64,000 bases of DNA from positions 1,980,501 to 2,044,500 of the forward strand of contig NZ_CP072309.1 in assembly GCF_017726655.1 (NCBI RefSeq), read 5' to 3'. The notes under the pieces are model-generated. The model ran no database searches, was not told the DNA's origin, and was given only the letters and a program-made list of their open reading frames with translations. This DNA is from Agrobacterium tumefaciens (GTDB lineage Bacteria > Pseudomonadota > Alphaproteobacteria > Rhizobiales > Rhizobiaceae). The translations under genes were made by a program, and so were the position numbers. Of the stretch, positions 30,499 through 42,765 are shown piece by piece. Positions within the stretch are counted from its first letter, which is position 1, and each line of letters begins with the position of its first letter.

Positions 30499-31479
30499 AT
30501 GACCGACAATCCCATCGAGCTCGCAATTTCCAGACGGCATGTCCTGCTGGCCGGCGCCGCGTTTTCCACTGCAATGGCCATGCCGACGCTCGCATTTTCA
30601 AAATCCATCCCAACCCGCAATGAAGGAGCATTTCCAATGACCGAATCATTCGTAAAGACCAAGGACGGCGTCGATATCTATTTCAAGGACTGGGGTTCGA
30701 AGGATGCCCAGCCGATCGTCTTCCATCACGGCTGGCCGCTATCCTCCGACGACTGGGATGCGCAGATGCTGTTCTTCGTTCAGAACGGCTACCGCGTCGT
30801 GGCGCATGATCGTCGCGGTCACGGACGTTCTCAGCAGGTGAGCGACGGCCACGACATGGATCATTATGCCGCCGATGCATCCGCTGTTGCCGAACATCTT
30901 GATCTCAGGAACGCTGTTCATATCGGACACTCGACTGGCGGTGGTGAGGTCGCGCGTTACGTCGCAAAATTTGGCGAGCCGCAGGGCCGTGTCGCCAAGG
31001 CCGTCCTCGTCTCCGCGGTTCCGCCGCTGATGCTAAAGACGCCCTCCAACCCCGGTGGCCTGGCGATCGAAGTCTTCGACAGCTTCCGCAAGGGTGTGGC
31101 CGAAAACCGCGCCCAGTTCTTCCTCGACGTGCCGACCGGGCCGTTCTACGGTTTCAACCGTCCGGACGCCAAAATCTATCCCGGTGTTATCCAGAACTGG
31201 TGGCGTCAGGGCATGATGGGCAGCGCCAAGGCCCATTACGACGGCGTGAAGGCCTTTTCGGAAACCGATCAGACGGAAGACCTGAAGGCGATCACGGTGC
31301 CGACGCTCGTTCTCCACGGCGATGACGACCAGGTCGTGCCGATCGCAGATTCGGCCGAATTGTCAGTCAAGCTTCTGAAAAACGGCACGCTGAAGGTTTA
31401 CAAGGGTTATCCGCATGGCATGCTGACAACCCATGCCGACATCATCAATCCCGATCTGCTGGCCTTCGTGAAGGGCTGA
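30499..31479 (+). CDS. Tat-exported alpha/beta hydrolase (cofactor-free haloperoxidase type)
   Basis: A 326-residue alpha/beta hydrolase of the non-heme chloroperoxidase/arylesterase group. The catalytic Ser is in [14 protein letters not shown], the Asp in [10 protein letters not shown] and the His in [10 protein letters not shown]; the oxyanion strand is [12 protein letters not shown]. The N-terminal [14 protein letters not shown] is a twin-arginine signal. An internal start (ATG 30637, [11 protein letters not shown]) after a GGAG site would give the usual cytoplasmic form, so two products are conceivable. It is co-directional with dps. Most relatives act as esterases or perhydrolases. Confidence 0.87.
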
Positions 31480-31715: not shown

Positions 31716-31865
31716 TCGATGCGATTGCCGTCCTCGACCGTAGCTTATTGTATCAGCAATTAGAGAGGCTACATCGAGGTACCGTTTTCGGTTTCGGTGG
31801 AAAACTCTCGACACAACGCTTCTCCATCAAGTGGCGCAATATCGTATTCATGATGGAGATCCGAG

Positions 31866-32069
31866 ATGACCAACGCAGTGTCGCTTCTGTCGATCCGCAG
31901 GGTTTTGAATGAGTTCTGCGAAGAGAACCGCCTGCCGATCAGCTGCTCGACAGCCGTCGACGCCGCAAAATACCTGATGAGGATCGCCTCCTCGGAGGCT
32001 GTGCCGGGATCAATGTTGCGATCTGCGCTGGATCAGTGGATGGCGGAACGCGTCCCGGTTGCGGCCTGA
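31866..32069 (+). CDS. Small helical protein of unknown function (67 aa)
   Basis: A 67-residue frame starting at ATG 31866 with GGAG 8 bases upstream. The sequence is mostly helical and ends in DQWMAERVPVAA. No known family is recognised. A bidirectional terminator follows 23 bases after the stop, which supports a real 3' end here. Confidence 0.55.
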   Translation: MTNAVSLLSIRRVLNEFCEENRLPISCSTAVDAAKYLMRIASSEAVPGSMLRSALDQWMAERVPVAA

Positions 32070-32091
32070 AATCTCCTGGCCTCAGATATGG

Positions 32092-33606: not shown

Positions 33607-33654
33607 GTATCCCGGCTGTTTCTTTCGACCTGCTGTTGCGTCACGAAACGTCGG
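33607..33654 (-). promoter_or_regulatory. Shared regulatory motif, epoxide hydrolase promoter
   Basis: Minus strand: GGATAC at 33612-33607, 63 bases before the start codon. Upstream of it CCGAC-GTTTC-GTGAC (33654-33640) lies at the common 33-base offset. A further TGTATCCAGA lies upstream at 33683-33674. This is the weakest copy of the direct-repeat half but has the same spacing as the other four sites. Confidence 0.55.
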
Positions 33655-33741
33655 TTTTCGCACGGCTGACACTTCTGGATACAAAGTCGGCCTGAAGCAG
33701 AACGGAGAGTGCGCCGGGACCGGCGCTGCGGACTCCTCGCG

Positions 33742-35160
33742 TTACGGGGTGAGCACGGCTCGCGGTTCGAGCATGCCGTCGAGACCGAAGGCACCGATCT
33801 CCCGGCCTATACCGGACTGCTTGAAACCGCCGAAGGGCGCGCGGGGATCATGCGGTGCGCCGTTGATGACGACGCGGCCGGCCATCAGCCTCTCGGCGAT
33901 GCGTTCGGCACGTCTGAGGTCGGATCCAAGCACATAGGCTTGCAATCCGTAGTCGCTATCATTGGCGATTTTGACGGCCTCATCTTCGTCCTCATAGGCG
34001 AGAAGACACAGGACGGGACCAAAGATTTCTTCGCGGGCGATACGCATTTCGTTCGTGACATCTGCGAAGATTGTCGGGCGGGCGAACCATCCTTTTTCAA
34101 TCCCGGCTGGTCGTCCGGTTCCGCCTGTCAGCAGGGTTGCTCCTTCTTCGACACCAAGCCGGATGTAAGTCTGGATCCTCTCCCACTGGGCAAGGCTGGC
34201 GAGAGGGCCTATCCGAACCTCCGGATCACGGGGATCGCCGACTTTGAATGTTTCAGCCGCCATCCTCAACCGCTCGGCAATCTCGGGGAGACGGGACCTT
34301 GGAGCAAGGATACGGGTACCCGCGACGCAGGCCTGGCCGCTGTTTGCAAAGCCCGACATCAGGGCGACAGGTATAGCCTTGTCGAGGTCGGCATCCGGCA
34401 GGATAATGGTGGGTGCTTTGCCTCCCAGCTCCAGAACCACCCTTTTCATGCCGTCGATCGCCGCGCGCTGAATGATCTTTGCAGCCTGGGTGGAACCGGT
34501 GAAACTGACGGTCGCCACGTCGGGATCCTGCGTCAGCGCCGCACCGACCACCGGACCCGTGCCGTTGACAATGTTGAAAACCCCTGCAGGCAGGCCGGCC
34601 CGATGCAGCCTTCTCACCAGAATATCCGTCTGAAATGCACTCTGTTCGGCCGGTTTGATGACGAGGGACGAGCCTGAACCGATTGCATGCGCAAGCTTGG
34701 TGGCGATAAAACCGAAATTGCTGTTCCAGGGCGTGATGGCGGCGAGAACGCCGCGCGGCAGCATCCTGACCGTGCTTTTGCCCACGACCCGGTCAAAGTC
34801 GTAGTTCGCGACGGTCTCAGCCATAACATCAAAAATCGACGCTGCATTTTGAACGGAGAAAGCCGTGAAATAAGCGGGCGCGCCGTATTCTTCGGTCATG
34901 ACCTGCGTGAGCTCATCCGGTCGCTCTTCGATCGTATCGCGCAGGCTGCGCAGCATATCGATACGCTGCGCCTTGGTGGATGTTGCCATGGCGGGAAAAG
35001 CCCGTTTCGCGGCTGCCACTGCGGCCCTTGCATCATCAGCATTGCCAAAACGGACATCGCCGATTTTTTCTTCCGTTGCCGGATTGAAAAGGTCCATCCG
35101 TTCATTGCCGTCTGGCACCACAAATTTACCGTCAATATAGATGTGTTCGATTGATCGCAT
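33742..35160 (-). CDS. Aldehyde dehydrogenase
   Basis: A 472-residue NAD(P)-dependent aldehyde dehydrogenase. The catalytic Cys is in FANSGQACVAGTRI, the general-base Glu in VLELGGKAPTII, the cofactor motif is FTGSTQAAK and the N-terminus is MRSIEHIYIDGKFV. It would oxidise an aldehyde, possibly one produced by neighbouring hydrolases. The start at 35160 gives the family length; the open frame upstream to 35337 is a shadow. Its promoter lacks the shared GGATAC motif seen in its neighbours. Confidence 0.87.
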   Translation of the reverse strand: MRSIEHIYIDGKFVVPDGNERMDLFNPATEEKIGDVRFGNADDARAAVAAAKRAFPAMATSTKAQRIDMLRSLRDTIEERPDELTQVMTEEYGAPAYFTAFSVQNAASIFDVMAETVANYDFDRVVGKSTVRMLPRGVLAAITPWNSNFGFIATKLAHAIGSGSSLVIKPAEQSAFQTDILVRRLHRAGLPAGVFNIVNGTGPVVGAALTQDPDVATVSFTGSTQAAKIIQRAAIDGMKRVVLELGGKAPTIILPDADLDKAIPVALMSGFANSGQACVAGTRILAPRSRLPEIAERLRMAAETFKVGDPRDPEVRIGPLASLAQWERIQTYIRLGVEEGATLLTGGTGRPAGIEKGWFARPTIFADVTNEMRIAREEIFGPVLCLLAYEDEDEAVKIANDSDYGLQAYVLGSDLRRAERIAERLMAGRVVINGAPHDPRAPFGGFKQSGIGREIGAFGLDGMLEPRAVLTP

Positions 35161-35333
35161 TGATCTGGCCTCGTTTAAGATGGTTGGAAATCCGGCTCGT
35201 CTCGACGCCGCGGAACGCGCTGGAGGCGCGCCGGATGGGTCCAAGAAGACTTCACTGCGTTGATCAGAGGGATGGCAGGAAGAAGTGGAAAAGCGAAAAC
35301 GGCTGCGGCGGGCGCCGAGCCGTTCCCTTGGGG

Positions 35334-35492
35334 TCACATCGATGAGACCGCGCCCAGAAGTCCCGCAAGCGGCGAGGGCTCGTCGGATGTTGCATCATAT
35401 ACGCACGGTGCTGCAAATATCGCCGCAAACACGATGGCGATGACAAGCGCACGGGCGGAAACAACAGGCTTAAGCGAGCTTGAGCGTAACAT
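35334..35492 (-). CDS. Possible small membrane protein overlapping the end of ohr
   Basis: A 52-codon frame begins with ATG at 35492, 23 bases inside the 3' end of ohr in another frame, after a GGGGGA ribosome site 8 bases away. It has one membrane-spanning stretch (SARALVIAIVFAAIFAAP) and a short polar tail. Translational coupling to ohr is possible. The length is small and no family is recognised. Confidence 0.38.
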   Translation of the reverse strand: MLRSSSLKPVVSARALVIAIVFAAIFAAPCVYDATSDEPSPLAGLLGAVSSM

Positions 35493-35886
35493 CGATGTTC
35501 CCCCTGGTGGCCTTCGAATAGGGGCAGATCTGGTGGGCATCCTCGATGATGGCCTGTGCTACGGGACGATCGATCCCGGGCAGGCTTACCGACAGGCGAG
35601 CCTGCAGGAAGAACTCGCCGCCCGTCGTGCCGAGGTCGACTTCCGCATCGACGGCGGTGTCGGCGGGAAGCCGGAGCTGGCGTTTCGCCGCCGCCTTTGT
35701 CATGGCGCCGATAAAACATGCCGACCAGCCGGCCGCAAAAAGCTGTTCGGGATTCGTGCCCGGCTTGCCGCTGCCCGGAGGGGAGAGCTTGATGCCGAGC
35801 GCACCGTCGTCGCTTTGCGCCGATCCGTCACGGCCGCCCCTCGTGTGGGTCTTGCCGGTATAAAGAACAGTCTCGATCTTGGTCAT
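35470..35886 (-). CDS. ohr: Organic hydroperoxide resistance protein (Ohr/OsmC family)
   Basis: A 138-residue OsmC/Ohr thiol peroxidase. The two active-site cysteines are in WSACFIGAM and HQICPYSKATRGN; the opening YTGKTHTRGGRDG and the LSPPGSGKPGTNPEQLFAAG loop with the conserved Glu are typical of Ohr. It reduces organic hydroperoxides using lipoylated or dithiol partners. A usual OhrR regulator is not adjacent. Instead the gene follows the two-component kinase gene by 140 bases, and a copy of the shared GGATAC motif lies in that gap. Confidence 0.93.
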   Translation of the reverse strand: MTKIETVLYTGKTHTRGGRDGSAQSDDGALGIKLSPPGSGKPGTNPEQLFAAGWSACFIGAMTKAAAKRQLRLPADTAVDAEVDLGTTGGEFFLQARLSVSLPGIDRPVAQAIIEDAHQICPYSKATRGNIDVTLKLA

Positions 35887-35950
35887 GGGAGGCTCCTTTC
35901 ATTTGCCGTTGCTGCGGCGTTTCGTGATAGGAGCTTTGTGATGGATCAGC

Positions 35951-35997
35951 GTATCCGGCATGTTTCCGGAAAATGCTATACTGTATCGAAACGTAGC
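35951..35997 (-). promoter_or_regulatory. Shared regulatory motif, ohr promoter
   Basis: Minus strand: GCTAC-GTTTC-GATAC (35997-35983), then GGATAC at 35956-35951, 65 bases before the ohr start codon. The segment ACATGCCGGATAC is identical to the copy before cytochrome P460 at 42718-42765, and both direct-repeat halves match it as well. Confidence 0.72.
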
Positions 35998-36026
35998 GGC
36001 CGACAGGATCATTGGCCGCCGTCCGT

Positions 36027-37343
36027 TTAGGGGAAGGTCACTTCGGCCGCGAGCCCGCCACCGTGCCTGTTATAGAGGCGCACCGAGCCGCCGATCGTTC
36101 CGGCGAGCTGCTGCGCAATTGCAAGTCCGAGACCTGTTCCGCCTGTGTCGCGGTTCCTCGACGTTTCAATTCGGAAGAAGGGCTGCATGGCATTTTGCAG
36201 CATCTGGTCAGGAATACCCGGTCCACGATCCAGCACGGTTATGACCACGGCACCTTCAGCGCGTCGGTCCACCGTGATTTCGGCGCCACCGGCAAATTTG
36301 AGGGCGTTATCTATGAAGTTCGTCAATATTCTGCGCAATGCATGCGGTTTGGTCGACGCCGTGCCGCGGACAATGCCGGAGACCGTGACGGCCTTTCCGG
36401 TATCCTGATAGTCGTAGGCGATGCTGTCGATGAAGGAAGCCAGGTCGATACGCGATGTTTTCTCGCCGTTGCCGTGAGCGCTGCGCGCATAAGCGATCCC
36501 GTCCTGCACCAGACGTTCAATTTCACGCAGGTCGCTGACCAGTTTTTCCTTTTCCGGCGTTTCGTCGGCCATATCGGCCCTCAATCGCATGCGGGTGATG
36601 GGCGTCTGCAGGTCGTGCGAGATCGCCGCCAGAATCTGGACGCGTTCTTCAAGATATTGCGCGACGCGATCACGCATGGCGTTGAAAGCGCGGGCGGCAT
36701 GCGCAACTTCGCTTGGGCCGTTCTCGCTCATCGGCAAACCCTTCTCGCCCGGATCGAGCGCTTCCGCTGCCGCAGCAAGCGCACTGAGGGGCCGGGTCGT
36801 TTGCCGCACCGCAAGCCAGGTCAACAGCAGCAGAACCACCATTTGCGCAGCGAAGACATAAGGCAGCCATTCCGCCAAAGGCATCACGCCGCGTGGGGTA
36901 ACATTGATCGTCAATGGCGAACCGTCGGATAACGTCAGATGTGCCTGAAGCCTCTTGCCGTCGCCGGGGATAGACTCCACCCTGACGGGAAACCTGTGTC
37001 CTACGGCTTCTTCGATCCTCTGCGCGATTTCCGCGCCGCGTCCGGACAAGTCGGAAACGCCGGGAAGGCCGGGCCCGAGGACGAGTTGATAGTTGCTGCG
37101 GCTGAGACGATTGACCCAGTCGGCCCGCTCACCCGCAGGCAGGCGGTCGACGATGGCAATCGAAACCGCAAGGTCTTGCTCCAGCGTGCCGAGCATGACC
37201 GCCTTGGCCGACATGTATCGTTCGGCAAAAAGGATGCTGAACGACAGGCCATAGGCAATGGCGAGGCCGGCGAAAAGAATGAGAAAGAGCCTGGACCGCA
37301 ACGAGCGTGGCCACCAGCCAGCCAGCAGGTGCCGATCGTTCAT
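36027..37343 (-). CDS. OmpR-family sensor histidine kinase (EnvZ-like)
   Basis: A 438-residue sensor kinase. The first membrane helix (about residues 19-40) is followed by a periplasmic domain of about 120 residues, a second helix (WLPYVFAAQMVVLLLLTWLAV), HAMP, then phospho-His in AAISHDLQTPITRMRLR and ATPase motifs NALKFA, DRGPGIP and GGTGLGLAIAQQL. It overlaps its partner regulator by 4 bases. The gene order regulator-kinase-ohr and the surrounding regulatory motifs suggest that it monitors envelope or redox stress; the actual signal is unknown. Confidence 0.92.
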   Translation of the reverse strand: MNDRHLLAGWWPRSLRSRLFLILFAGLAIAYGLSFSILFAERYMSAKAVMLGTLEQDLAVSIAIVDRLPAGERADWVNRLSRSNYQLVLGPGLPGVSDLSGRGAEIAQRIEEAVGHRFPVRVESIPGDGKRLQAHLTLSDGSPLTINVTPRGVMPLAEWLPYVFAAQMVVLLLLTWLAVRQTTRPLSALAAAAEALDPGEKGLPMSENGPSEVAHAARAFNAMRDRVAQYLEERVQILAAISHDLQTPITRMRLRADMADETPEKEKLVSDLREIERLVQDGIAYARSAHGNGEKTSRIDLASFIDSIAYDYQDTGKAVTVSGIVRGTASTKPHALRRILTNFIDNALKFAGGAEITVDRRAEGAVVITVLDRGPGIPDQMLQNAMQPFFRIETSRNRDTGGTGLGLAIAQQLAGTIGGSVRLYNRHGGGLAAEVTFP

Positions 37344-38080
37344 GTCCTTGGCTCCGAAATCTCCACCGGTACGGAAAAGACATAACCCTCCGCCCGCACC
37401 GTCTTGATGTAGGTGGGTTCCCGCGCATCATCCCCCAGCCGCTGGCGCACGCGGCTCACGAGAAGATCGATCGACCGGTCGAAGATCTCGGCATCGCGTC
37501 CTTGGGTGAGGTTCAAGAGCTGGTCGCGGTTGAGGACGCGCTGGGGATGATCGATGAAGACCCTGAGAAGCCGATACTCAGCCCCGCTCAATGCAACGGT
37601 CGTGCCCTCCCTGTCGAGCAGGTGGCGGCCCACGGTGTCGAGGCGCCAATCACCAAAGGTCAGGAGCTGCCCGGCCTCGCTGATCTGCAGATTGGGAGGC
37701 AGCATCCGCGTGCGGCGCAGGATGGCCTTGATCCGCGCAAGAAGCTCCCGGGCCGCGAAGGGTTTCGACAGATAGTCGTCGGCACCCATTTCGAGCCCGA
37801 TGATCCGATCCATCTCGTCATCGCGTGCGGTGAGCATCAGCACCGGCGTGGCCTTGTGCTTGCCTGCTCGCAACTCTCGGCAGAGAACCAGCCCGTCATC
37901 ACCGGGCATCATCACGTCGAGCACGATCAGATCGACGGCGTTACCATCGAGAAAACTTCTCATCTGCCGCCCATCGGCCGCCACGCTCGTGCGCAGGCCG
38001 TTCTTCTTCAGGTAGCTGGAGACCAGTTCCCGGATTTCCCTGTCGTCGTCAACGACAAGAATGTGATCGATATGTTCCAT
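37340..38080 (-). CDS. OmpR/PhoB-family response regulator
   Basis: A 246-residue winged-helix response regulator. Receiver residues are VDDD (acidic pocket), phospho-Asp in LIVLDVMMPGDDG, Thr in MLTARDDE and Lys in LSKPFAARELLARI. The DNA-binding domain has the family's LSGAEYRLLRVFIDHPQRVLNRDQLLNLTQGRD. It is the best local candidate to bind the 10-bp-phased boxes shared by five nearby promoters, because OmpR-type regulators bind direct repeats about 10-11 bp apart. Its own upstream region lacks the motif. Confidence 0.92.
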   Translation of the reverse strand: MEHIDHILVVDDDREIRELVSSYLKKNGLRTSVAADGRQMRSFLDGNAVDLIVLDVMMPGDDGLVLCRELRAGKHKATPVLMLTARDDEMDRIIGLEMGADDYLSKPFAARELLARIKAILRRTRMLPPNLQISEAGQLLTFGDWRLDTVGRHLLDREGTTVALSGAEYRLLRVFIDHPQRVLNRDQLLNLTQGRDAEIFDRSIDLLVSRVRQRLGDDAREPTYIKTVRAEGYVFSVPVEISEPRT

Positions 38081-38174
38081 TGGGTGCCTTCGTCGTTCGG
38101 ACGGTTCGAGTGGCCCGCTACCGCGTCCCCTGCGTTACAGGCAGTAAGACAACGGTTCGCGGGCTTCGGCAAGC

Positions 38175-39221
38175 CTAAAGCTTTGCGACGTCGAGAACCG
38201 CCTTAGCAAATGCCTCCGGCGCCTCCTGCGCAAGGTTATGGCCGATTCCGCCGCTGATATTGCGGTGCTGGTACTTGCCGGAAAACTTCGATGCATAGGC
38301 GGAAGGGTCCGGATGCGGCGCGCCATTGGCGTCACCTTCCAGCGTTATCGTGGGAACGGTGATGACCGGAAGTTTTGCAAGCTGGCGCTCGTAATCATCA
38401 TATTTGGCTTCGCCTTCGGCCAGTGCCAGTCGCCAGCGGTAATTGTGGATAGTGATCGCCACATGGTCGGGGTTGTCGAATGCGGGGGCAGAACGATCAA
38501 AGGTCTCGTCGCTGAATTTCCAGGTCGGAGATGCCATCTGCCAGATCAGGCGAACGAAGTCGCGGGTGTTGGCGGCATAGCCCGCACGGCCGCGTTCCGT
38601 CGCGAAATAGAACTGGTACCACCAGGAGAGTTCCGCCTTGGGCGGAAGCGGCTTCCTGTTGATTTCCTGACTGCCGATAAGGTAGCCGCTGACCGATACG
38701 AGTCCGATGCAACGCTCTGGCCAGAGCGCCGCCATGATGTCGGCAGTGCGTGCGCCCCAGTCGTATCCAGCCACTATGGCCTGTTTGACGCCGAGCGCGT
38801 CGAGAAAGGCGATCATGTCGACCGCAAGTGCTGCCTGCTGCCCGTTGCGCGCGGTTTCGTCCGAGAGAAAGCGGGTCGTGCCATATCCGCGCAGATAGGG
38901 GACAAGCACCCGATATCCTGCCGAAGCAAGGATGGGCGCGACATCGACATAGCTGTAGATGTCATACGGCCAGCCGTGCAGCAGCAGCGCGACCGGGCCG
39001 TCTGCGGGGCCAGCTTCGGCATAACCGACATTGAGAACGCCCGCCTTGACCTGCTTCAGGGCGCCAAAGGAGGTGGCTGCACCGCTTGGCGCTGAGGGTT
39101 GAGTCGAAGCGGGTTCGCCTTTGGCGTGCGCCAGGCCTACCGCACCGAATTCGACTGCGGCAACCGTCATTGCGGCAATGCCGAAGAAGCGGCGGCGCTG
39201 GAAATTGATCTCGGAATTCAT
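38175..39221 (-). CDS. Tat-exported alpha/beta hydrolase with Asp nucleophile
   Basis: A 348-residue alpha/beta hydrolase. The nucleophile position reads VAGYDWGARTADI, so an Asp as in epoxide hydrolases and dehalogenases rather than a Ser; the oxyanion motif is LLHGWPYDIYSY and the catalytic His is in GIGHNLAQEAP. The N-terminus RRRFFGIAAMTVAAVEFG is a twin-arginine signal. The start at 39221 is followed by this signal; the upstream extension to 39347 is not needed. The promoter carries the shared motif and an extra GATAC-N5-GATAC direct repeat. Confidence 0.87.
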   Translation of the reverse strand: MNSEINFQRRRFFGIAAMTVAAVEFGAVGLAHAKGEPASTQPSAPSGAATSFGALKQVKAGVLNVGYAEAGPADGPVALLLHGWPYDIYSYVDVAPILASAGYRVLVPYLRGYGTTRFLSDETARNGQQAALAVDMIAFLDALGVKQAIVAGYDWGARTADIMAALWPERCIGLVSVSGYLIGSQEINRKPLPPKAELSWWYQFYFATERGRAGYAANTRDFVRLIWQMASPTWKFSDETFDRSAPAFDNPDHVAITIHNYRWRLALAEGEAKYDDYERQLAKLPVITVPTITLEGDANGAPHPDPSAYASKFSGKYQHRNISGGIGHNLAQEAPEAFAKAVLDVAKL

Positions 39222-39270
39222 TGCTGTCTCTCCTGTCCATGTTGGATGATGGGCAGGTAACGCCGTGCGT

Positions 39271-39317
39271 GTATCCTCGATGTGTCGAGGGGGCACGAAT
39301 GTGAATGGTTTTGTAGC
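39271..39317 (-). promoter_or_regulatory. Shared regulatory motif, exported hydrolase promoter
   Basis: Minus strand: GCTAC at 39317-39313, then 5 bases, then a degenerate CATTC (39307-39303), and GGATAC at 39276-39271, 50 bases before the start codon. The bases CGACACAT before GGATAC match the P460 copy. On the plus strand GATACAGACTGATACA (39331-39346) is an additional 10-bp direct repeat, and TCTGGATACA (39327-39336) also occurs before the epoxide hydrolase. Confidence 0.6.
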
Positions 39318-39425
39318 AGCGACGGCTCTGGATACAGACTGATACATTCGGTCTGCCCTCTGAACGCAAATCAGCCGCCCCCGGTGCCGGGAGCGGCTAT
39401 ATCAGAACCTCAAAATTGGCGCTGT

Positions 39426-40184
39426 TTATTGCGCGGATTGGCGGGCGGCCTGTTCAATGACATCCGCGACCTTTTCGGGCTGGGAGGCGAAGACCGCGTG
39501 GCTCGCCGCAATCTCGGTCACCGCACTACCGGCGCGCTTTGCCATGTCACGTTCGAGATCGGGGTTGATCGACCGGTCCTGCGTTGCGACGATCGACCAG
39601 CTCTTCTTTGTTTTCCAGGCTGGTTCGTCGGCCTTGGCGGCAAAGGCGGCCTTGGCAGCGAAGACCTGGCTTTTTGCCATAAAAGCCGCTTCCTCACGGG
39701 GCAGGTCGGCTGCGAAATCTTGGGCAAAGGCGGCCGGATCGAGATAGAGGAATGCGTTATCCTTCGTCTGCTTGATGCCTTTGCCAGCCGGTGGTTTCGA
39801 TCCCGCGAGGTCGAGAAGGCTCTCTCCCTTCTCCGGCTGGAAGGCGGCGACATAAACGAGACCTGCCACATCCGGTCGGTTACCGGCTTCCGAGATCACC
39901 ATTCCACTGTAGCTGTGCCCGACCAGTAGGCTTGGGCCTTGCTGAAGATCAAGGACGCGGTTTGTTGCCGCGACGTCATCGGCAAGGGAGGTGATGGGCT
40001 CCTGCACGATCGTGACGTTGAACCCACGGCTTTCGAGGATATCCGTCGCCTTGCGCCAAGCCGAGCCATCGGCGAGCGCGCCGTGGACTATAACGATATT
40101 CTTGACCTCTGCCGCCTGCGCGGCAAATGCGATCAGGGCGGTCGCGACGGCGAGCGCAAATTTTGGCATGAGACGGTGGTGCAT
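39426..40184 (-). CDS. Secreted alpha/beta hydrolase (EstC-like)
   Basis: A 252-residue alpha/beta hydrolase with a Sec signal peptide (MPKFALAVATALIAFAAQA). The catalytic Ser is in LLVGHSYSGMVI, the Asp in TQDRSINPDLE and the His in AASHAVFAS. The oxyanion loop is IVHGALADGSAW. The family contains small esterases and polyneuridine-aldehyde-esterase-like proteins. It is 45 bases after dipZ, with no motif in between, so the two probably form one operon controlled by the motif before dipZ. Confidence 0.85.
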   Translation of the reverse strand: MHHRLMPKFALAVATALIAFAAQAAEVKNIVIVHGALADGSAWRKATDILESRGFNVTIVQEPITSLADDVAATNRVLDLQQGPSLLVGHSYSGMVISEAGNRPDVAGLVYVAAFQPEKGESLLDLAGSKPPAGKGIKQTKDNAFLYLDPAAFAQDFAADLPREEAAFMAKSQVFAAKAAFAAKADEPAWKTKKSWSIVATQDRSINPDLERDMAKRAGSAVTEIAASHAVFASQPEKVADVIEQAARQSAQ

Positions 40185-40229
40185 CGTGTTTCTCCTTTGG
40201 TGTTCCTGCGGGCGGGACGAAGATTGGGG

Positions 40230-42008
40230 TCAGCCGAAGGTGAAGGCATAGGCCTGCACGCCGGGATCCAGAAAACGAATGGCGAAGGTTCTGGCTTGAA
40301 CGGTGCCGGACTGGCGGACGAGCTGGTAAAGGCGGGTTGACGTGACGACGCCATTGCCATCGACATCCGTATCGGCTCCATGATCCGCGCCTGGCGGGTG
40401 GCCGTCGATGCTCACCTGGAAACGGACCGGTTTTCCGGCACCATCAGGCCCAAGCACCAGATGCAGGTCACGGGCGCTGAAGCGGTAGGTTATGCCGCCA
40501 TTTGCCATATCAAGGGTCGCCGCTTCCGCGCCAACGGTCCATTTTCCGGAAAGTCCCCATTCATTCAGGGACGGTGTCTTGACGGAGTAATCGCGGGGCG
40601 TGTCTGCGCGCATCGCCTCGTTTGACGCAAAGCCCTGCGCCTGCCTGTAACCTATATAGGTTTCACCCGAGAGCATGTGCCTGATATCCGCGCCGGCTTC
40701 CGCGCCGTTTGCCTCGGGGCTCACGGTGTCGCTGGCGGAAGCGCTGCTGCCGGCCTCGCGCAGCAGATTCTGGATCGCCTCTTCGGTCTCCCGGTAGTTG
40801 CCCTCGCCGAAATGGTGGTAGCGGATCTGACCCCGGGCATCGATCAGGTAATGTGCCGGCCAATAGCTGTTATCAAAGGCGCGCCAGATTTTGTAATCAT
40901 TGTCGATTGCTACCGGATAGTTGATCTTGAAGTCGGCTACGGCCTGCCTGACATTGTCGATCTTCTTTTCGAAGGCGAATTCGGGCGCGTGGACGCCGAT
41001 GACGACGAGCCCCTGATCCCCGTATTTCTCCGCCCAGGCACGCACATAAGGAATGGTGCGAATGCAATTGATGCAGGAATAGGTCCAGAAGTCGATGAGC
41101 ACGACCTTACCACGCAGTTGTTCACGCGTGAGCGGTGGCGAGTTCAGCCATTCGACGGCGCCATCGAGGGACGGGGCCCGGCCTTCAGCCGGTAGTTCCG
41201 ACCTGAACGGCGTAGCGCTGGAGCCTGCTGCCGGGGCGTCGGCTTCGCCCGCCGACGCTATCTTCTGCTCAGGGGCTTTGGCGGTATGGAGCCGATCGAG
41301 GACCTGCTGTTCGAAGGATGCCGTGCTCGCATAGGAAAGCTGCGACAGGAAGCCCGTATCGAGCCCGAGCGCGATGACGGCGACCCCGGCAAGAACCGCT
41401 GCGCCAAGCCCCTGCCGGATCCGCTCGCTGAAACCGAGAGACCGCTTCATGGCCGCAAATACCCGGCTTCCGACGAGGAGGGCTACGGCAAGCGAGGTCG
41501 CGGCACCCGTGGCATAAGCGGCAAGCAGCAGGCTGGTCCCCAGATTGGCGCCCTTCAGGGCCGCACCGGTCAGCACCAGTCCAAGGATCGGTCCGGCGCA
41601 GGGCGCCCATAAGAGGCCGGTGGCGATGCCGAGCATCAGGGAACCCACGACCGTTGGAACAGCCCCCGGCTTCCCGGCGGCATTGGCAAGGCGGTTGCCG
41701 AGTTCGACGACCGGGCGGCTGATGACGCTGGCCGCGCGCGGCGAGATCAGCCCCACGCCGAAAACGGCGAGCAGCGCGAGAGCGGCAAGCCGACCATATT
41801 CATTGGCATTGATGGCCCAGCTGCCGCCCAGTGCGGCGAGCGTCGCGACCGCGGAAAAGGTTGCCGCCATGCCAACGAGCAGGGGGAGTGTGCTGCGCAG
41901 GAACGGTTGTCCCGCCCGCGCAAAAACGAAGGGCAGGATGGGTAGGATACAGGGGCTGAGAATCGTCAGCACCCCTCCGAGATAGGCAATGATCAGCAGC
42001 GTCATCAT
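40230..42008 (-). CDS. dipZ: DipZ-type fused CcdA/thioredoxin membrane protein
   Basis: A 592-residue fusion. Residues 1-220 are a CcdA/DsbD-type membrane domain with six or so helices and two cysteines (LSPCILPILPF and WAPCAGPILGL). A TlpA/thioredoxin-like domain has CINC (FWTYSCINCIRTIPY) at about residue 313. A C-terminal beta-sandwich follows, as in mycobacterial DipZ. It should carry electrons from cytoplasmic thioredoxin to periplasmic thiols. The promoter bears the shared motif. It is followed by a secreted hydrolase, and cytochrome P460 lies upstream. Confidence 0.9.
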   Translation of the reverse strand: MMTLLIIAYLGGVLTILSPCILPILPFVFARAGQPFLRSTLPLLVGMAATFSAVATLAALGGSWAINANEYGRLAALALLAVFGVGLISPRAASVISRPVVELGNRLANAAGKPGAVPTVVGSLMLGIATGLLWAPCAGPILGLVLTGAALKGANLGTSLLLAAYATGAATSLAVALLVGSRVFAAMKRSLGFSERIRQGLGAAVLAGVAVIALGLDTGFLSQLSYASTASFEQQVLDRLHTAKAPEQKIASAGEADAPAAGSSATPFRSELPAEGRAPSLDGAVEWLNSPPLTREQLRGKVVLIDFWTYSCINCIRTIPYVRAWAEKYGDQGLVVIGVHAPEFAFEKKIDNVRQAVADFKINYPVAIDNDYKIWRAFDNSYWPAHYLIDARGQIRYHHFGEGNYRETEEAIQNLLREAGSSASASDTVSPEANGAEAGADIRHMLSGETYIGYRQAQGFASNEAMRADTPRDYSVKTPSLNEWGLSGKWTVGAEAATLDMANGGITYRFSARDLHLVLGPDGAGKPVRFQVSIDGHPPGADHGADTDVDGNGVVTSTRLYQLVRQSGTVQARTFAIRFLDPGVQAYAFTFG

Positions 42009-42083
42009 CTTTTCCTTTCAGGCGGGAGTTCGGGCTGCGGGTGGTAAGGCGGCCCGGTAATGAGGCCATTCTCCCGGCCTCGC

Positions 42084-42131
42084 GTATCCCTGATATGTCG
42101 GGACTTCCGTGGATTTGTATTCGAGTGTAAA
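42084..42131 (-). promoter_or_regulatory. Shared regulatory motif, dipZ promoter
   Basis: Minus strand: TTTAC-ACTCG-AATAC (42131-42117), then GGATAC at 42089-42084, 76 bases before the dipZ start. CGACATAT precedes GGATAC at the same offset as in the P460 and exported-hydrolase copies. Confidence 0.6.
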
Positions 42132-42157
42132 AGCTGGCCGCGGGGCCTTGTCATTCG

Positions 42158-42667
42158 TCAGGGCGCGTAGCGCGTAAACACAAAATCGTGGTCCTTGACG
42201 TTGCCCACGTGGCAGGAGAGACAGGTCTCATGCTGCGCGACATCGACCGGTTTTCCGTTGACGAACCGCCCGAAACCCCAGCCATGGCTGTCGGGATATT
42301 TTTGGGAGTCCTTGACCATTACCTGCACGGTGGTCGCTGCGCCAGGCACCGTGGCCGGGGGAAATTCCGTCGATTGCTGCCGCTTGTAAGCAAGCTTCAC
42401 CAATATCGAGCCATCGGGAAAGGGCAGGGTTCCGTTCTTGTAGGCGTTAACGGCGATATCGTTTGCAAGAACCGCACGAAGCTCGTCGAGCGGCGGAGCC
42501 TCCTGTGCGGGGGCGATGAACCGCCAGTCACGATATCCTTCGGGAAGCGTGACGCCGTAGATGGGAGAGGCGTTTTCCGGCCGCGTGTCCGCATGGCTCG
42601 AATAAACGGCCCCAAAGCCTGCTCCCGCAACCGAGAGAGCGACGGCGAAAAAAATCTGGCTCTTCAT
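42158..42667 (-). CDS. Cytochrome P460-family c-type heme protein
   Basis: A 169-residue periplasmic protein with a signal peptide and one c-type heme motif, CLSCH, near residue 152. It ends in NVKDHDFVFTRYAP, typical of the cytochrome P460 family. The Lys in ILVKLAYKRQQ may be the cross-link lysine of P460 hemes. Known members oxidise hydroxylamine or handle nitric oxide; others are of unknown role. It lies upstream of dipZ, whose thiol-redox function would help heme c maturation. Its promoter carries the best copy of the shared motif. Confidence 0.87.
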   Translation of the reverse strand: MKSQIFFAVALSVAGAGFGAVYSSHADTRPENASPIYGVTLPEGYRDWRFIAPAQEAPPLDELRAVLANDIAVNAYKNGTLPFPDGSILVKLAYKRQQSTEFPPATVPGAATTVQVMVKDSQKYPDSHGWGFGRFVNGKPVDVAQHETCLSCHVGNVKDHDFVFTRYAP

Positions 42668-42717
42668 GAGAAATCCTGCCTGATCCGAAAATGATCAGGC
42701 ATTGATCTGCGCCGCAG

Positions 42718-42765
42718 GTATCCGGCATGTGTCGTGAAACCCGCATTTATGTATCAGATCGTAGC
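42718..42765 (-). promoter_or_regulatory. Shared regulatory motif, cytochrome P460 promoter
   Basis: Minus strand: GCTAC-GATCT-GATAC (42765-42751), then CGACACATGCC immediately before GGATAC at 42723-42718, 51 bases before the start codon. This copy agrees with the ohr copy at GCTAC, GATAC and ACATGCCGGATAC. Confidence 0.72.

What the first reader, a model, noticed from the sequence alone, without database searches (positions are those of the whole stretch)
33607..42765. Five nearby promoters share an uncharacterised two-part motif: a candidate local regulon
Read on the coding (minus) strand, the promoters of the epoxide hydrolase, ohr, the exported hydrolase at 38175, dipZ and cytochrome P460 all have GGATAC 50, 51, 63, 65 or 76 bases before the start codon. 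In all five, a pair of 5-base boxes ten bases apart lies 32-33 bases upstream of GGATAC. The best copies are GCTAC-GATCT-GATAC (42765-42751) and GCTAC-GTTTC-GATAC (35997-35983). The others are TTTAC-ACTCG-AATAC, GCTAC-AAAAC-CATTC and CCGAC-GTTTC-GTGAC. Bases CGACAyAT precede GGATAC in three copies and ACATGCC in two. A ten-base direct repeat at about -45/-55 relative to a GGATAC -10 region is how an OmpR/PhoB-type activator would sit. An OmpR-type pair (36027-38080) lies in the middle, and the targets form a theme of exported hydrolases, thiol redox and peroxide defence. I know of no described regulon with this motif.
Basis: partly seen in the sequence, partly recalled or inferred. Interest (0 to 1): 0.82.

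Follow-up and report, generated by a model that had tools for sequence, protein, structure and literature searches.

The report
Two-component regulon with shared operator
Five neighbouring promoters in an Agrobacterium-like genome carry the same long DNA operator, which comparative genomics ties to the two-component regulator encoded between them and which recurs in a minority of Rhizobiaceae in front of exported hydrolase, thiol-redox and peroxide-defence genes.

Summary
All five copies are as stated and intergenic. The motif is longer than described: four GNNAC half-sites on one helix face, [G/C]CTAC-N5-GATACA-N16/17-GAmACAT-N4-GATAC. Two promoters add a reversed pair exactly 13 bases upstream. 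GANACA-N5-GATAC occurs five times in the 5.08-Mb genome, four in these promoters. Half-sites are conserved in orthologous promoters. Among 297 Rhizobiaceae genomes a strict form occurs in 18, all among the 27 with the regulator, none of 270 without. Linkage explains part of this, but four of the 18 have it on another contig. Unlinked copies precede dipZ, a second ohr, epoxide hydrolase (EH), P460 and an exported cupin. Best explanation: the OmpR-type regulator at 37340-38080 (RR) binds two tandem pairs and activates dipZ-hyd2, ohr, EH, P460 and its own hyd-RR-HK operon. GGATAC may be the promoter-proximal half-site rather than the -10; this is unsettled. Binding, activation and signal are untested. 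Nine searches of an open-paper library found no description. New member of a known kind.

The parts
33607..33654 (-). Operator of the EH promoter: A pair CCGAC-GTTTC-GTGAC (33640-33654), gap 17, B pair GAAAC-AGCCGG-GATAC (33607-33622)
   Evidence: aligned with 4 orthologous EH promoters, of which the L032 copy has decayed (18.9 bits)
33668..33682 (-). Reversed pair GTATC-CAGAA-GTGTC, 13 bases upstream of the EH A pair
   Evidence: kept in 3 of the 4 orthologous EH promoters aligned
35951..35997 (-). Operator of the ohr promoter: A pair GCTAC-GTTTC-GATAC (35983-35997), gap 16, B pair GAAAC-ATGCCG-GATAC (35951-35966)
   Evidence: 48.4 bits
39271..39317 (-). Operator of the hyd-RR-HK promoter (proposed autoregulation): A pair GCTAC-AAAAC-CATTC (39303-39317), gap 16, B pair GACAC-ATCGAG-GATAC (39271-39286)
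   Evidence: 40.0 bits
39331..39345 (-). Reversed pair GTATC-AGTCT-GTATC, 13 bases upstream of the hyd A pair
   Evidence: at the same 13-base distance in 79 of 79 hyd promoters of the named loci, 75 without mismatch
42084..42131 (-). Operator of the dipZ-hyd2 promoter: A pair TTTAC-ACTCG-AATAC (42117-42131), gap 17, B pair GACAT-ATCAGG-GATAC (42084-42099)
   Evidence: 38.0 bits
42718..42765 (-). Operator of the P460 promoter: A pair GCTAC-GATCT-GATAC (42751-42765), gap 17, B pair GACAC-ATGCCG-GATAC (42718-42733)
   Evidence: 47.4 bits
37340..38080 (-). RR: OmpR/PhoB-family response regulator, proposed to bind the operators
   Evidence: PF00072 + PF00486; best NCBIfam model OmpR, below cut-off; DNA-binding domain closest to AmgR, OmpR and RstA among solved chains
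36027..37343 (-). HK: EnvZ-like membrane sensor kinase, overlapping the 3' end of RR
   Evidence: PF00672, PF00512, PF02518 above cut-off; EnvZ model best, below cut-off
38175..39221 (-). hyd: alpha/beta hydrolase with a Tat-type RRRFFG motif (read by eye); first gene of the proposed hyd-RR-HK operon
   Evidence: PF00561; hyd+ RR+ HK+ in this order in 79 of 80 named loci
35470..35886 (-). ohr: Ohr-family peroxiredoxin, target
   Evidence: TIGR03561 above cut-off
40230..42008 (-). dipZ: membrane and thioredoxin-like protein, target
   Evidence: PF17991 and PF00578 above cut-off; DsbD_TM (PF02683) 25.5 bits, just below its 27.1
39426..40184 (-). hyd2: alpha/beta hydrolase with a signal-peptide-like start (by eye), 45 bases downstream of dipZ, probably the same operon
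   Evidence: PF12697; coordinates
42158..42667 (-). Cytochrome P460-family protein, target (lineage-specific)
   Evidence: PF16694
32222..33544 (-). EH: epoxide-hydrolase-like protein, target (lineage-specific)
   Evidence: PF06441 + PF00561

Best explanation
The five sites are operators of one OmpR-type two-component system, the regulator at 37340-38080 and its EnvZ-like kinase at 36027-37343. [quoted passage not shown] When the kinase senses an envelope signal, the phosphorylated regulator would bind as two tandem dimers directly upstream of a weak -10, replace the missing -35 contact and activate transcription. Targets are hyd-RR-HK (positive autoregulation), dipZ-hyd2 and ohr, with EH and P460 recruited in this lineage. 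A reversed pair upstream of the hyd promoter adds a third dimer site. The signal is probably an oxidant or electrophile damaging the envelope. Shown: the motif, its conservation, its co-occurrence with the regulator, and its presence at target genes unlinked to it. Inferred: binding by this regulator, activation rather than repression, operon structure, promoter position and signal.
For: 1; 4 of 5 genome-wide core matches lie in these promoters. (gap 17): P460 0, dipZ 1 and EH 2 mismatches; one other place reaches 2. (gap 16): ohr and hyd 0 mismatches; five other places reach 2, four of them one repeated sequence; with gap 18, 26 matches, none in the cluster.
2; half-site columns mostly carry 1-2.3 bits; columns further upstream are mostly 0-0.5. 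ohr keeps its operator in L035 and L038, where extra DNA separates it from HK.
3; 250 sites of 14 bits or more in 1.62 Mb, 80 of 80 loci; hyd 79, dipZ 79, ohr 77, EH 6, P460 5, unassigned 3, labelled RR 1.
4; strict motif in 18 of 297 genomes, all 18 among the 27 with RR, 0 of 270 without (hypergeometric 1.6e-22, ignoring relatedness and linkage).
5. The 9 RR genomes that lack the strict form all have a site of 17 bits or more near RR.
6. Copies unlinked to RR: dipZ-hyd2 and a second ohr in G026 (43.9, 40.8 bits), P460 in G028 (27.3), EH in G306 and a cupin in G122, G207 and G186.
7. The DNA-binding domain resembles OmpR and RstA. RstA reads TACANNNNNNTACA and gains base specificity mainly through Arg200, Ser201, Val204 and Arg208 (PMC4117788, passages). 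The aligned residues here, R202, S203, L206 and R210, are invariant in 80 of 80 orthologs; that alignment is mine.
Against: No binding or expression data. In 14 of the 18 motif genomes the hit lies on the RR contig, so co-occurrence is partly co-inheritance of one gene block; no target gene kept without RR was available as a converse test for dipZ or P460. The core alone is not specific: GANACAYNNNNGATAC occurs in 47 of 61 genomes, many without RR. Matrix and patterns were built after seeing the sites; in leave-one-class-out, EH, hyd and dipZ only narrowly exceed the best of 5 Mb of random DNA. EH box pairs depart from consensus and the EH operator of L032 has decayed. Expected -10 hexamers are weak in this genome (EH CACCTG, -5.2), and only for dipZ is the best hexamer at the predicted place. 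No site of 17 bits or more lies near the 68%-identical regulator of G689 (15 kb held).
Confidence: 0.87

Rival explanations
1. The sites are operators of a different regulator (another OmpR-type response regulator or an ECF sigma factor), and the two-component genes are one more target.
For: The hyd-RR-HK promoter itself carries the motif. The genome has other response regulators: one search found 64 first-look candidates for RR-like proteins and scored 45, of which only RR itself reached 1e-60.
Against: The strict motif occurs in none of 270 genomes without this RR, and the unlinked copies found all lie in RR genomes. GNNAC half-sites with a 10-11-base period fit an OmpR/RstA-like DNA-binding domain. 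No ECF-type -35/-10 spacing is shared by the promoters (read by eye).
Confidence: 0.08
2. One reading: GGATAC is the -10 and only the upstream box pair is the operator.
For: GATAC plus the next base scores as a -10 about as well (-0.24 to 0.35 by class) as the best downstream offset (mean 0.39). In this genome the best downstream hexamer is at +11 for dipZ only (+29, +22, +20 and +22 for EH, ohr, hyd and P460). GGATAC lies 50-76 bases before the start codons, an acceptable leader length.
Against: GATAC forms an 11-base repeat with GAmACAT, the same half-site as the upstream pair and in helical phase with it. A weak A..AT signature shared by the classes stands at +12, +15 and +16, and +11 is the best of 45 offsets over the related promoters.
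Confidence: 0.35
3. The regulator represses rather than activates at these sites.
For: The B pair would cover the promoter region if GGATAC is the -10; OmpR-family regulators can do either.
Against: No -35-like sequence stands in front of either -10 candidate (by eye), the usual sign of an activator-dependent promoter, and the operator is placed like a class II activator site.
Confidence: 0.12
4. The similarity is only recent copying of one promoter fragment, without regulatory function.
For: The promoters lie close together on one strand, and ohr and P460 share ACATGCCGGATAC.
Against: Spacers and flanks differ between promoters (by eye), while half-sites are held over 80 loci in many genera.
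Confidence: 0.02

Closest known systems
OmpR/EnvZ of Escherichia coli and relatives
   Same: Receiver plus winged-helix regulator with an EnvZ-like membrane kinase; best NCBIfam models for both proteins. Tandem 10-base half-sites (PMC7380067, passages) with a GxxxC motif and AC pairs (PMC4403819, passages).
   Different: Both score below the curated equivalog cut-offs (249.2 vs 331; 179.4 vs 415 bits). The targets seen are hydrolases, thiol-redox and peroxide genes, not porins.
RstA/RstB
   Same: RstA box TACATNTNGTTACA, that is TACANNNNNNTACA (PMC4117788, passages), has the spacing of the A pair; RstA is among the closest solved DNA-binding domains.
   Different: Here a second, 11-base pair follows at a fixed distance, and the target genes differ; the RstA model scores below its cut-off (179 vs 330).
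HprSR and CusSR of E. coli (reactive chlorine and copper response, msrPQ)
   Same: Two-component systems that defend the envelope against reactive chlorine species or copper (PMC9302797, passages); that they are OmpR-family is recalled.
   Different: Their shared box CATTACAAAATTGTAATG is an inverted repeat, and msrPQ is not among the targets seen here.
AgrR of Cupriavidus metallidurans
   Same: OmpR-family activator with autoregulation and additional in-phase half-sites near the core (PMC7380067, passages).
   Different: Its core is an inverted repeat, ATKACANNNNTGTMAT.
OhrR-controlled ohr of Agrobacterium and Sinorhizobium
   Same: Same target enzyme family (cited in PMC3557214, passages).
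   Different: There the regulator is OhrR, a MarR-family repressor (recalled); this ohr copy is tied to a two-component system.

Membership tests
OmpR/PhoB-family response regulator | Receiver domain plus winged-helix Trans_reg_C domain | tested here: met
   PF00072 and PF00486 above cut-off; D55 invariant in 5 aligned sequences, its role as phospho-acceptor inferred
OmpR/PhoB-family operator | Tandem half-sites repeated every 10-11 bases on one DNA face | tested here: met
   Starts at 0, 10, 31-32, 42-43; 244 of 297 sites of 22 bits or more over gaps 10-24 fall at gap 16 or 17
OmpR (equivalog) | NCBIfam NF007005 score of 331 or more | tested here: not met
   249.2 bits
EnvZ (equivalog) | NCBIfam NF007004 score of 415 or more | tested here: not met
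   179.4 bits
RstA (equivalog) | NCBIfam NF007977 score of 330 or more | tested here: not met
   179 bits
Local regulon of the two-component pair | Sites in promoters, not spread through genes | tested here: met
   5 of 5 sites outside the 10 genes checked; 4 of 5 genome-wide core matches here; where the fifth match lies relative to genes was not examined
Local regulon of the two-component pair | Sites conserved with the regulator in relatives | tested here: met
   80 of 80 named loci; 18 of 18 strict-motif genomes carry RR; partly explained by linkage
Local regulon of the two-component pair | The regulator binds the sites and changes expression | not testable with these tools
   Needs binding assay, footprint and deletion strain
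Class II activator promoter | Operator ends about 10 bases before a -10 and replaces the -35 | tested here: inconclusive
   Weak A..AT signature at +12, +15, +16, but GATAC itself scores similarly and the hexamers in this genome are weak

The most novel reading that the evidence does not exclude
An envelope oxidant- and electrophile-defence regulon scattered through the Rhizobiaceae, run by an undescribed OmpR-type system that reads a rigid one-face operator of four half-sites as two stacked dimers, with a third, opposed dimer at its own promoter setting a positive-feedback switch. Its sensor may detect oxidants through invariant periplasmic methionines (M50 and M154 in all 73 kinases aligned; no Cys in the periplasmic part of this kinase). 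New enzymes such as P460, epoxide hydrolase and cupins join by acquiring the operator.
Probability: 0.35. Interest if true: 0.68.

Novelty: new member of a known kind. Interest (0 to 1): 0.57.

Why it matters
It gives a sharply defined, testable regulon and operator to a two-component system found in 27 of 297 sampled Rhizobiaceae genomes, for which nine searches of an open-paper library gave no description. It groups enzymes of unclear role (alpha/beta hydrolases, epoxide hydrolase, P460, cupin) with DipZ and Ohr, which points to a shared kind of envelope damage. The long, fixed operator makes it a good model for how an OmpR-type regulator uses stacked dimers and how a small regulon recruits genes.

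Tried and rejected
Box pair alone as evidence: rejected; with up to 2 mismatches it is as common as in shuffles.

Core motif in genomes without RR: one search found core matches in 47 of 61 genomes. I fetched 20 stretches: the G026 locus L137 and 19 around other core matches (15 from genomes without RR, 4 from genomes with it; not all such matches). Of those 19, one exceeded 11 bits by the full matrix (13.3, L152), so I read them as chance.

Four-box pattern with an 18-base gap: my spacing error; kept as a spacing control. No cluster hit.

A sixth site at 31740-31814: similar layout, but -3.4 bits; not counted.

Paralogous regulators at 54-57% identity (L041-L045) and the 68% one of G689 (L287): no site of 17 bits or more nearby (L045 has one 12.2-bit match).

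ECF-sigma promoter: considered by eye and dropped; no shared -35 at a fitting distance.

From papers I saw search listings and passages only, no whole paper. RhizoBindingSites (PMC7674921) holds predicted motifs; its database itself was not available to me.

Not done: structure prediction, fold search, the large protein search, and any tree-based correction of the counts.
Full report
WHAT WAS CHECKED. The window lies in contig C2 of a 5.08-Mb, two-contig genome. These are same-genus genomes, so the host is Agrobacterium-like.

THE MOTIF. Aligning 42 promoters of the five genes from ten genomes, the window's included, gives [G/C]CTAC-N5-GATAC(A), a gap of 16 or 17, then GAmACAT-N4-GATAC. Half-sites start at 0, 10, 31-32 and 42-43. 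Each half-site is GNNAC, often followed by A, so GGATAC can be read as the fourth half-site of one operator. In the hyd and EH promoters a reversed pair GTATC-N5-GTRTC ends exactly 13 bases before the first box (33668-33682, 39331-39345). In the window 2 such pairs are found and 0.09 are expected. Across the 80 named loci the reversed pair with at most 2 mismatches stands before 79 of 79 hyd, 40 of 79 dipZ, 14 of 77 ohr, 1 of 6 EH and 0 of 5 P460 promoters.

CHANCE. GANACANNNNNGATAC occurs 5 times in the genome, 4 in the EH, ohr, hyd and P460 promoters. dipZ has GACAT and so falls outside that pattern; the four-box pattern finds it with one mismatch. Counting places with at most 2 mismatches, the four-box pattern gives 4 at gap 17 (3 of them targets) and 7 at gap 16 (2 of them targets; 4 of the other 5 are one repeated sequence). 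The remaining matches have 3 mismatches, and total matches do not exceed the backwards control (34 against 99, and 25 against 29). With a gap of 18 none of 26 matches is in the cluster. These patterns were made after seeing the sites. The leave-one-class-out matrix is fairer: all five held-out sites rank in the top five of the 64 kb (EH 19.7, ohr 44.2, hyd 23.3, dipZ 23.1, P460 41.8 bits; best non-site 8.5). The three weaker ones, EH, hyd and dipZ, only just pass the best score of 5 Mb of random DNA (17.2, 18.3, 21.7).

CONSERVATION. The regulator has orthologs at 93-99% identity in 9 of 36 same-genus genomes, with most of the same gene block around it. In each of the nine loci operators stand in front of the target genes present. 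In two genomes (L035, L038) ohr is separated from HK by extra DNA, yet its operator is intact. In it, 250 sites of 14 bits or more occur in 1.62 Mb, against 3 per 5 Mb of random DNA. Every locus has at least one. Targets are hyd 79, dipZ 79, ohr 77, EH 6, P460 5; 3 were unassigned and 1 was labelled RR. Half-site columns mostly carry 1-2.3 bits and columns further upstream mostly 0-0.5. Downstream columns are conserved too, but differently in each promoter class, some strongly (up to 2.3 bits in ohr). The commonest gene order is hyd2- dipZ- hyd+ RR+ HK+ ohr+ (46 of 80), and RR lies behind hyd with a median gap of 117 bases, so three promoters look ancestral. In three genomes of another family (L288-L290), where no hyd was found, a hyd-type site stands upstream of RR instead.

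REGULATOR AND MOTIF GO TOGETHER. In 297 Rhizobiaceae genomes a strict four-box pattern occurs in 18 and the regulator at E 1e-100 or better in 27. All 18 are among the 27, and none of the other 270 has it (hypergeometric 1.6e-22, not corrected for relatedness). The backwards control is 0 in every genome listed. The 9 RR genomes without a strict match each have a matrix site of 17 bits or more near RR (L291-L299). The caveat is linkage: in 14 of the 18 the match is on the RR contig. The core half of the motif alone is not specific (47 of 61 genomes). The stronger evidence is the unlinked copies: G306 (EH), and G122, G207 and G186 (an exported 132-133-residue protein, a cupin by PF07883 for the one of G207), all on other contigs than RR. 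In G026, dipZ-hyd2 and a second ohr sit divergently on another contig with 43.9- and 40.8-bit sites. In G028, P460 sits on another contig with a 27.3-bit site. Within the 37 same-genus genomes, full-length dipZ orthologs occur in exactly the 10 with RR (three others give partial 63-65% matches), and P460 in 9 of those 10 and in none of the other 27. The converse test, a target gene kept in a genome without RR, was therefore not available for these two genes.

WHY THIS REGULATOR. It is an OmpR/PhoB-family protein whose DNA-binding domain matches AmgR, OmpR and RstA best among solved chains (the name AmgR for chain 6zwt is recalled, the entry is titled only 'two-component response regulator'). 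RstA reads TACANNNNNNTACA, and base specificity is put down mainly to Arg200, Ser201, Val204 and Arg208 (PMC4117788, passages; the passage also uses a numbering lower by one). The corresponding R202, S203, L206 and R210 are identical in 80 of 80 orthologs; this correspondence is my own, by the shared RSID motif. OmpR binds tandem 10-base half-sites (PMC7380067, passages). The A pair with TACA-N6-TACA is what such a domain could read.

HOW IT PROBABLY WORKS. Inferred: the kinase senses a periplasmic signal, and the phosphorylated regulator fills the four half-sites and activates. Where the promoter lies is open. Averaged over promoter classes, positions +12, +15 and +16 after GATAC lean to A, A and T, and +11 to +16 is the best-scoring -10 hexamer of 45 offsets (mean 0.39), but GATAC plus one base scores -0.24 to 0.35. 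In this genome the +11 hexamers are weak (dipZ GAGAAT 3.8, ohr 0.1, P460 0, hyd -0.3, EH -5.2), and only for dipZ is it the best hexamer nearby. I lean to the operator reading because GAmACAT and GATAC repeat the half-site in phase. The signal is a guess from the targets: Ohr reduces organic hydroperoxides, and DipZ-like proteins carry reducing power across the membrane (family knowledge). The periplasmic part of this kinase has no Cys; M50, H135 and M154 are invariant in 73 aligned kinases. HprSR of E. coli, a system for reactive chlorine species (PMC9302797, passages), is the nearest functional parallel I know.

KNOWN OR NEW. Regulator and kinase fall below the curated cut-offs for OmpR, RstA and EnvZ, so they may work like these but are not filed as members. 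Nine paper searches found no description of this gene set as a regulon; subscription papers are mostly outside that library, and predicted-motif databases could list the motif without naming it. I file it as a new member of a known kind: an OmpR-type regulon with an unusually long, rigid operator.

Noticed in passing
window 31740-31814 (+): GTAGC-N5-GTATC, 13 bases, then GCTAC-N5-GGTAC: the same reversed-plus-forward layout as at hyd, upstream of a 67-codon open frame with a ribosome-binding-like sequence (31867-32070, by eye). Largely kept in L034, but it scores only -3.4 bits; perhaps a decayed sixth site.
   Followed up: partly
window 42678-42700: Eight-base inverted repeat GCCTGATC/GATCAGGC just before the P460 start codon, largely conserved in the 8 aligned P460 leaders; it may mask the ribosome-binding site.
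   Followed up: no
L137 (G026:C19:268000-284000): The gene block is split over two contigs in this genome: dipZ-hyd2, a second ohr, the hydrolase like that of window 30499-31479 and a Dps-like gene (by eye) sit away from RR, with two divergent operators.
   Followed up: yes
L304, L305, L253, L295, L297, L299: A small exported protein, a cupin where tested, carries the operator in several genomes; in G122, G207 and G186 it is on another contig than RR.
   Followed up: partly
window 36027-37343: Kinase periplasmic part without Cys but with Met50, His135 and Met154 invariant in 73 aligned kinases.
   Followed up: partly
window 33742-35160: The aldehyde dehydrogenase gene within the cluster shows no operator of this kind upstream in the alignments, so it is not counted as a member.
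   Followed up: partly
L287 (G689): A 68%-identical regulator in another family has none of the target genes and no site of 17 bits in the 15 kb held; possibly a related system with its own operator.
   Followed up: no
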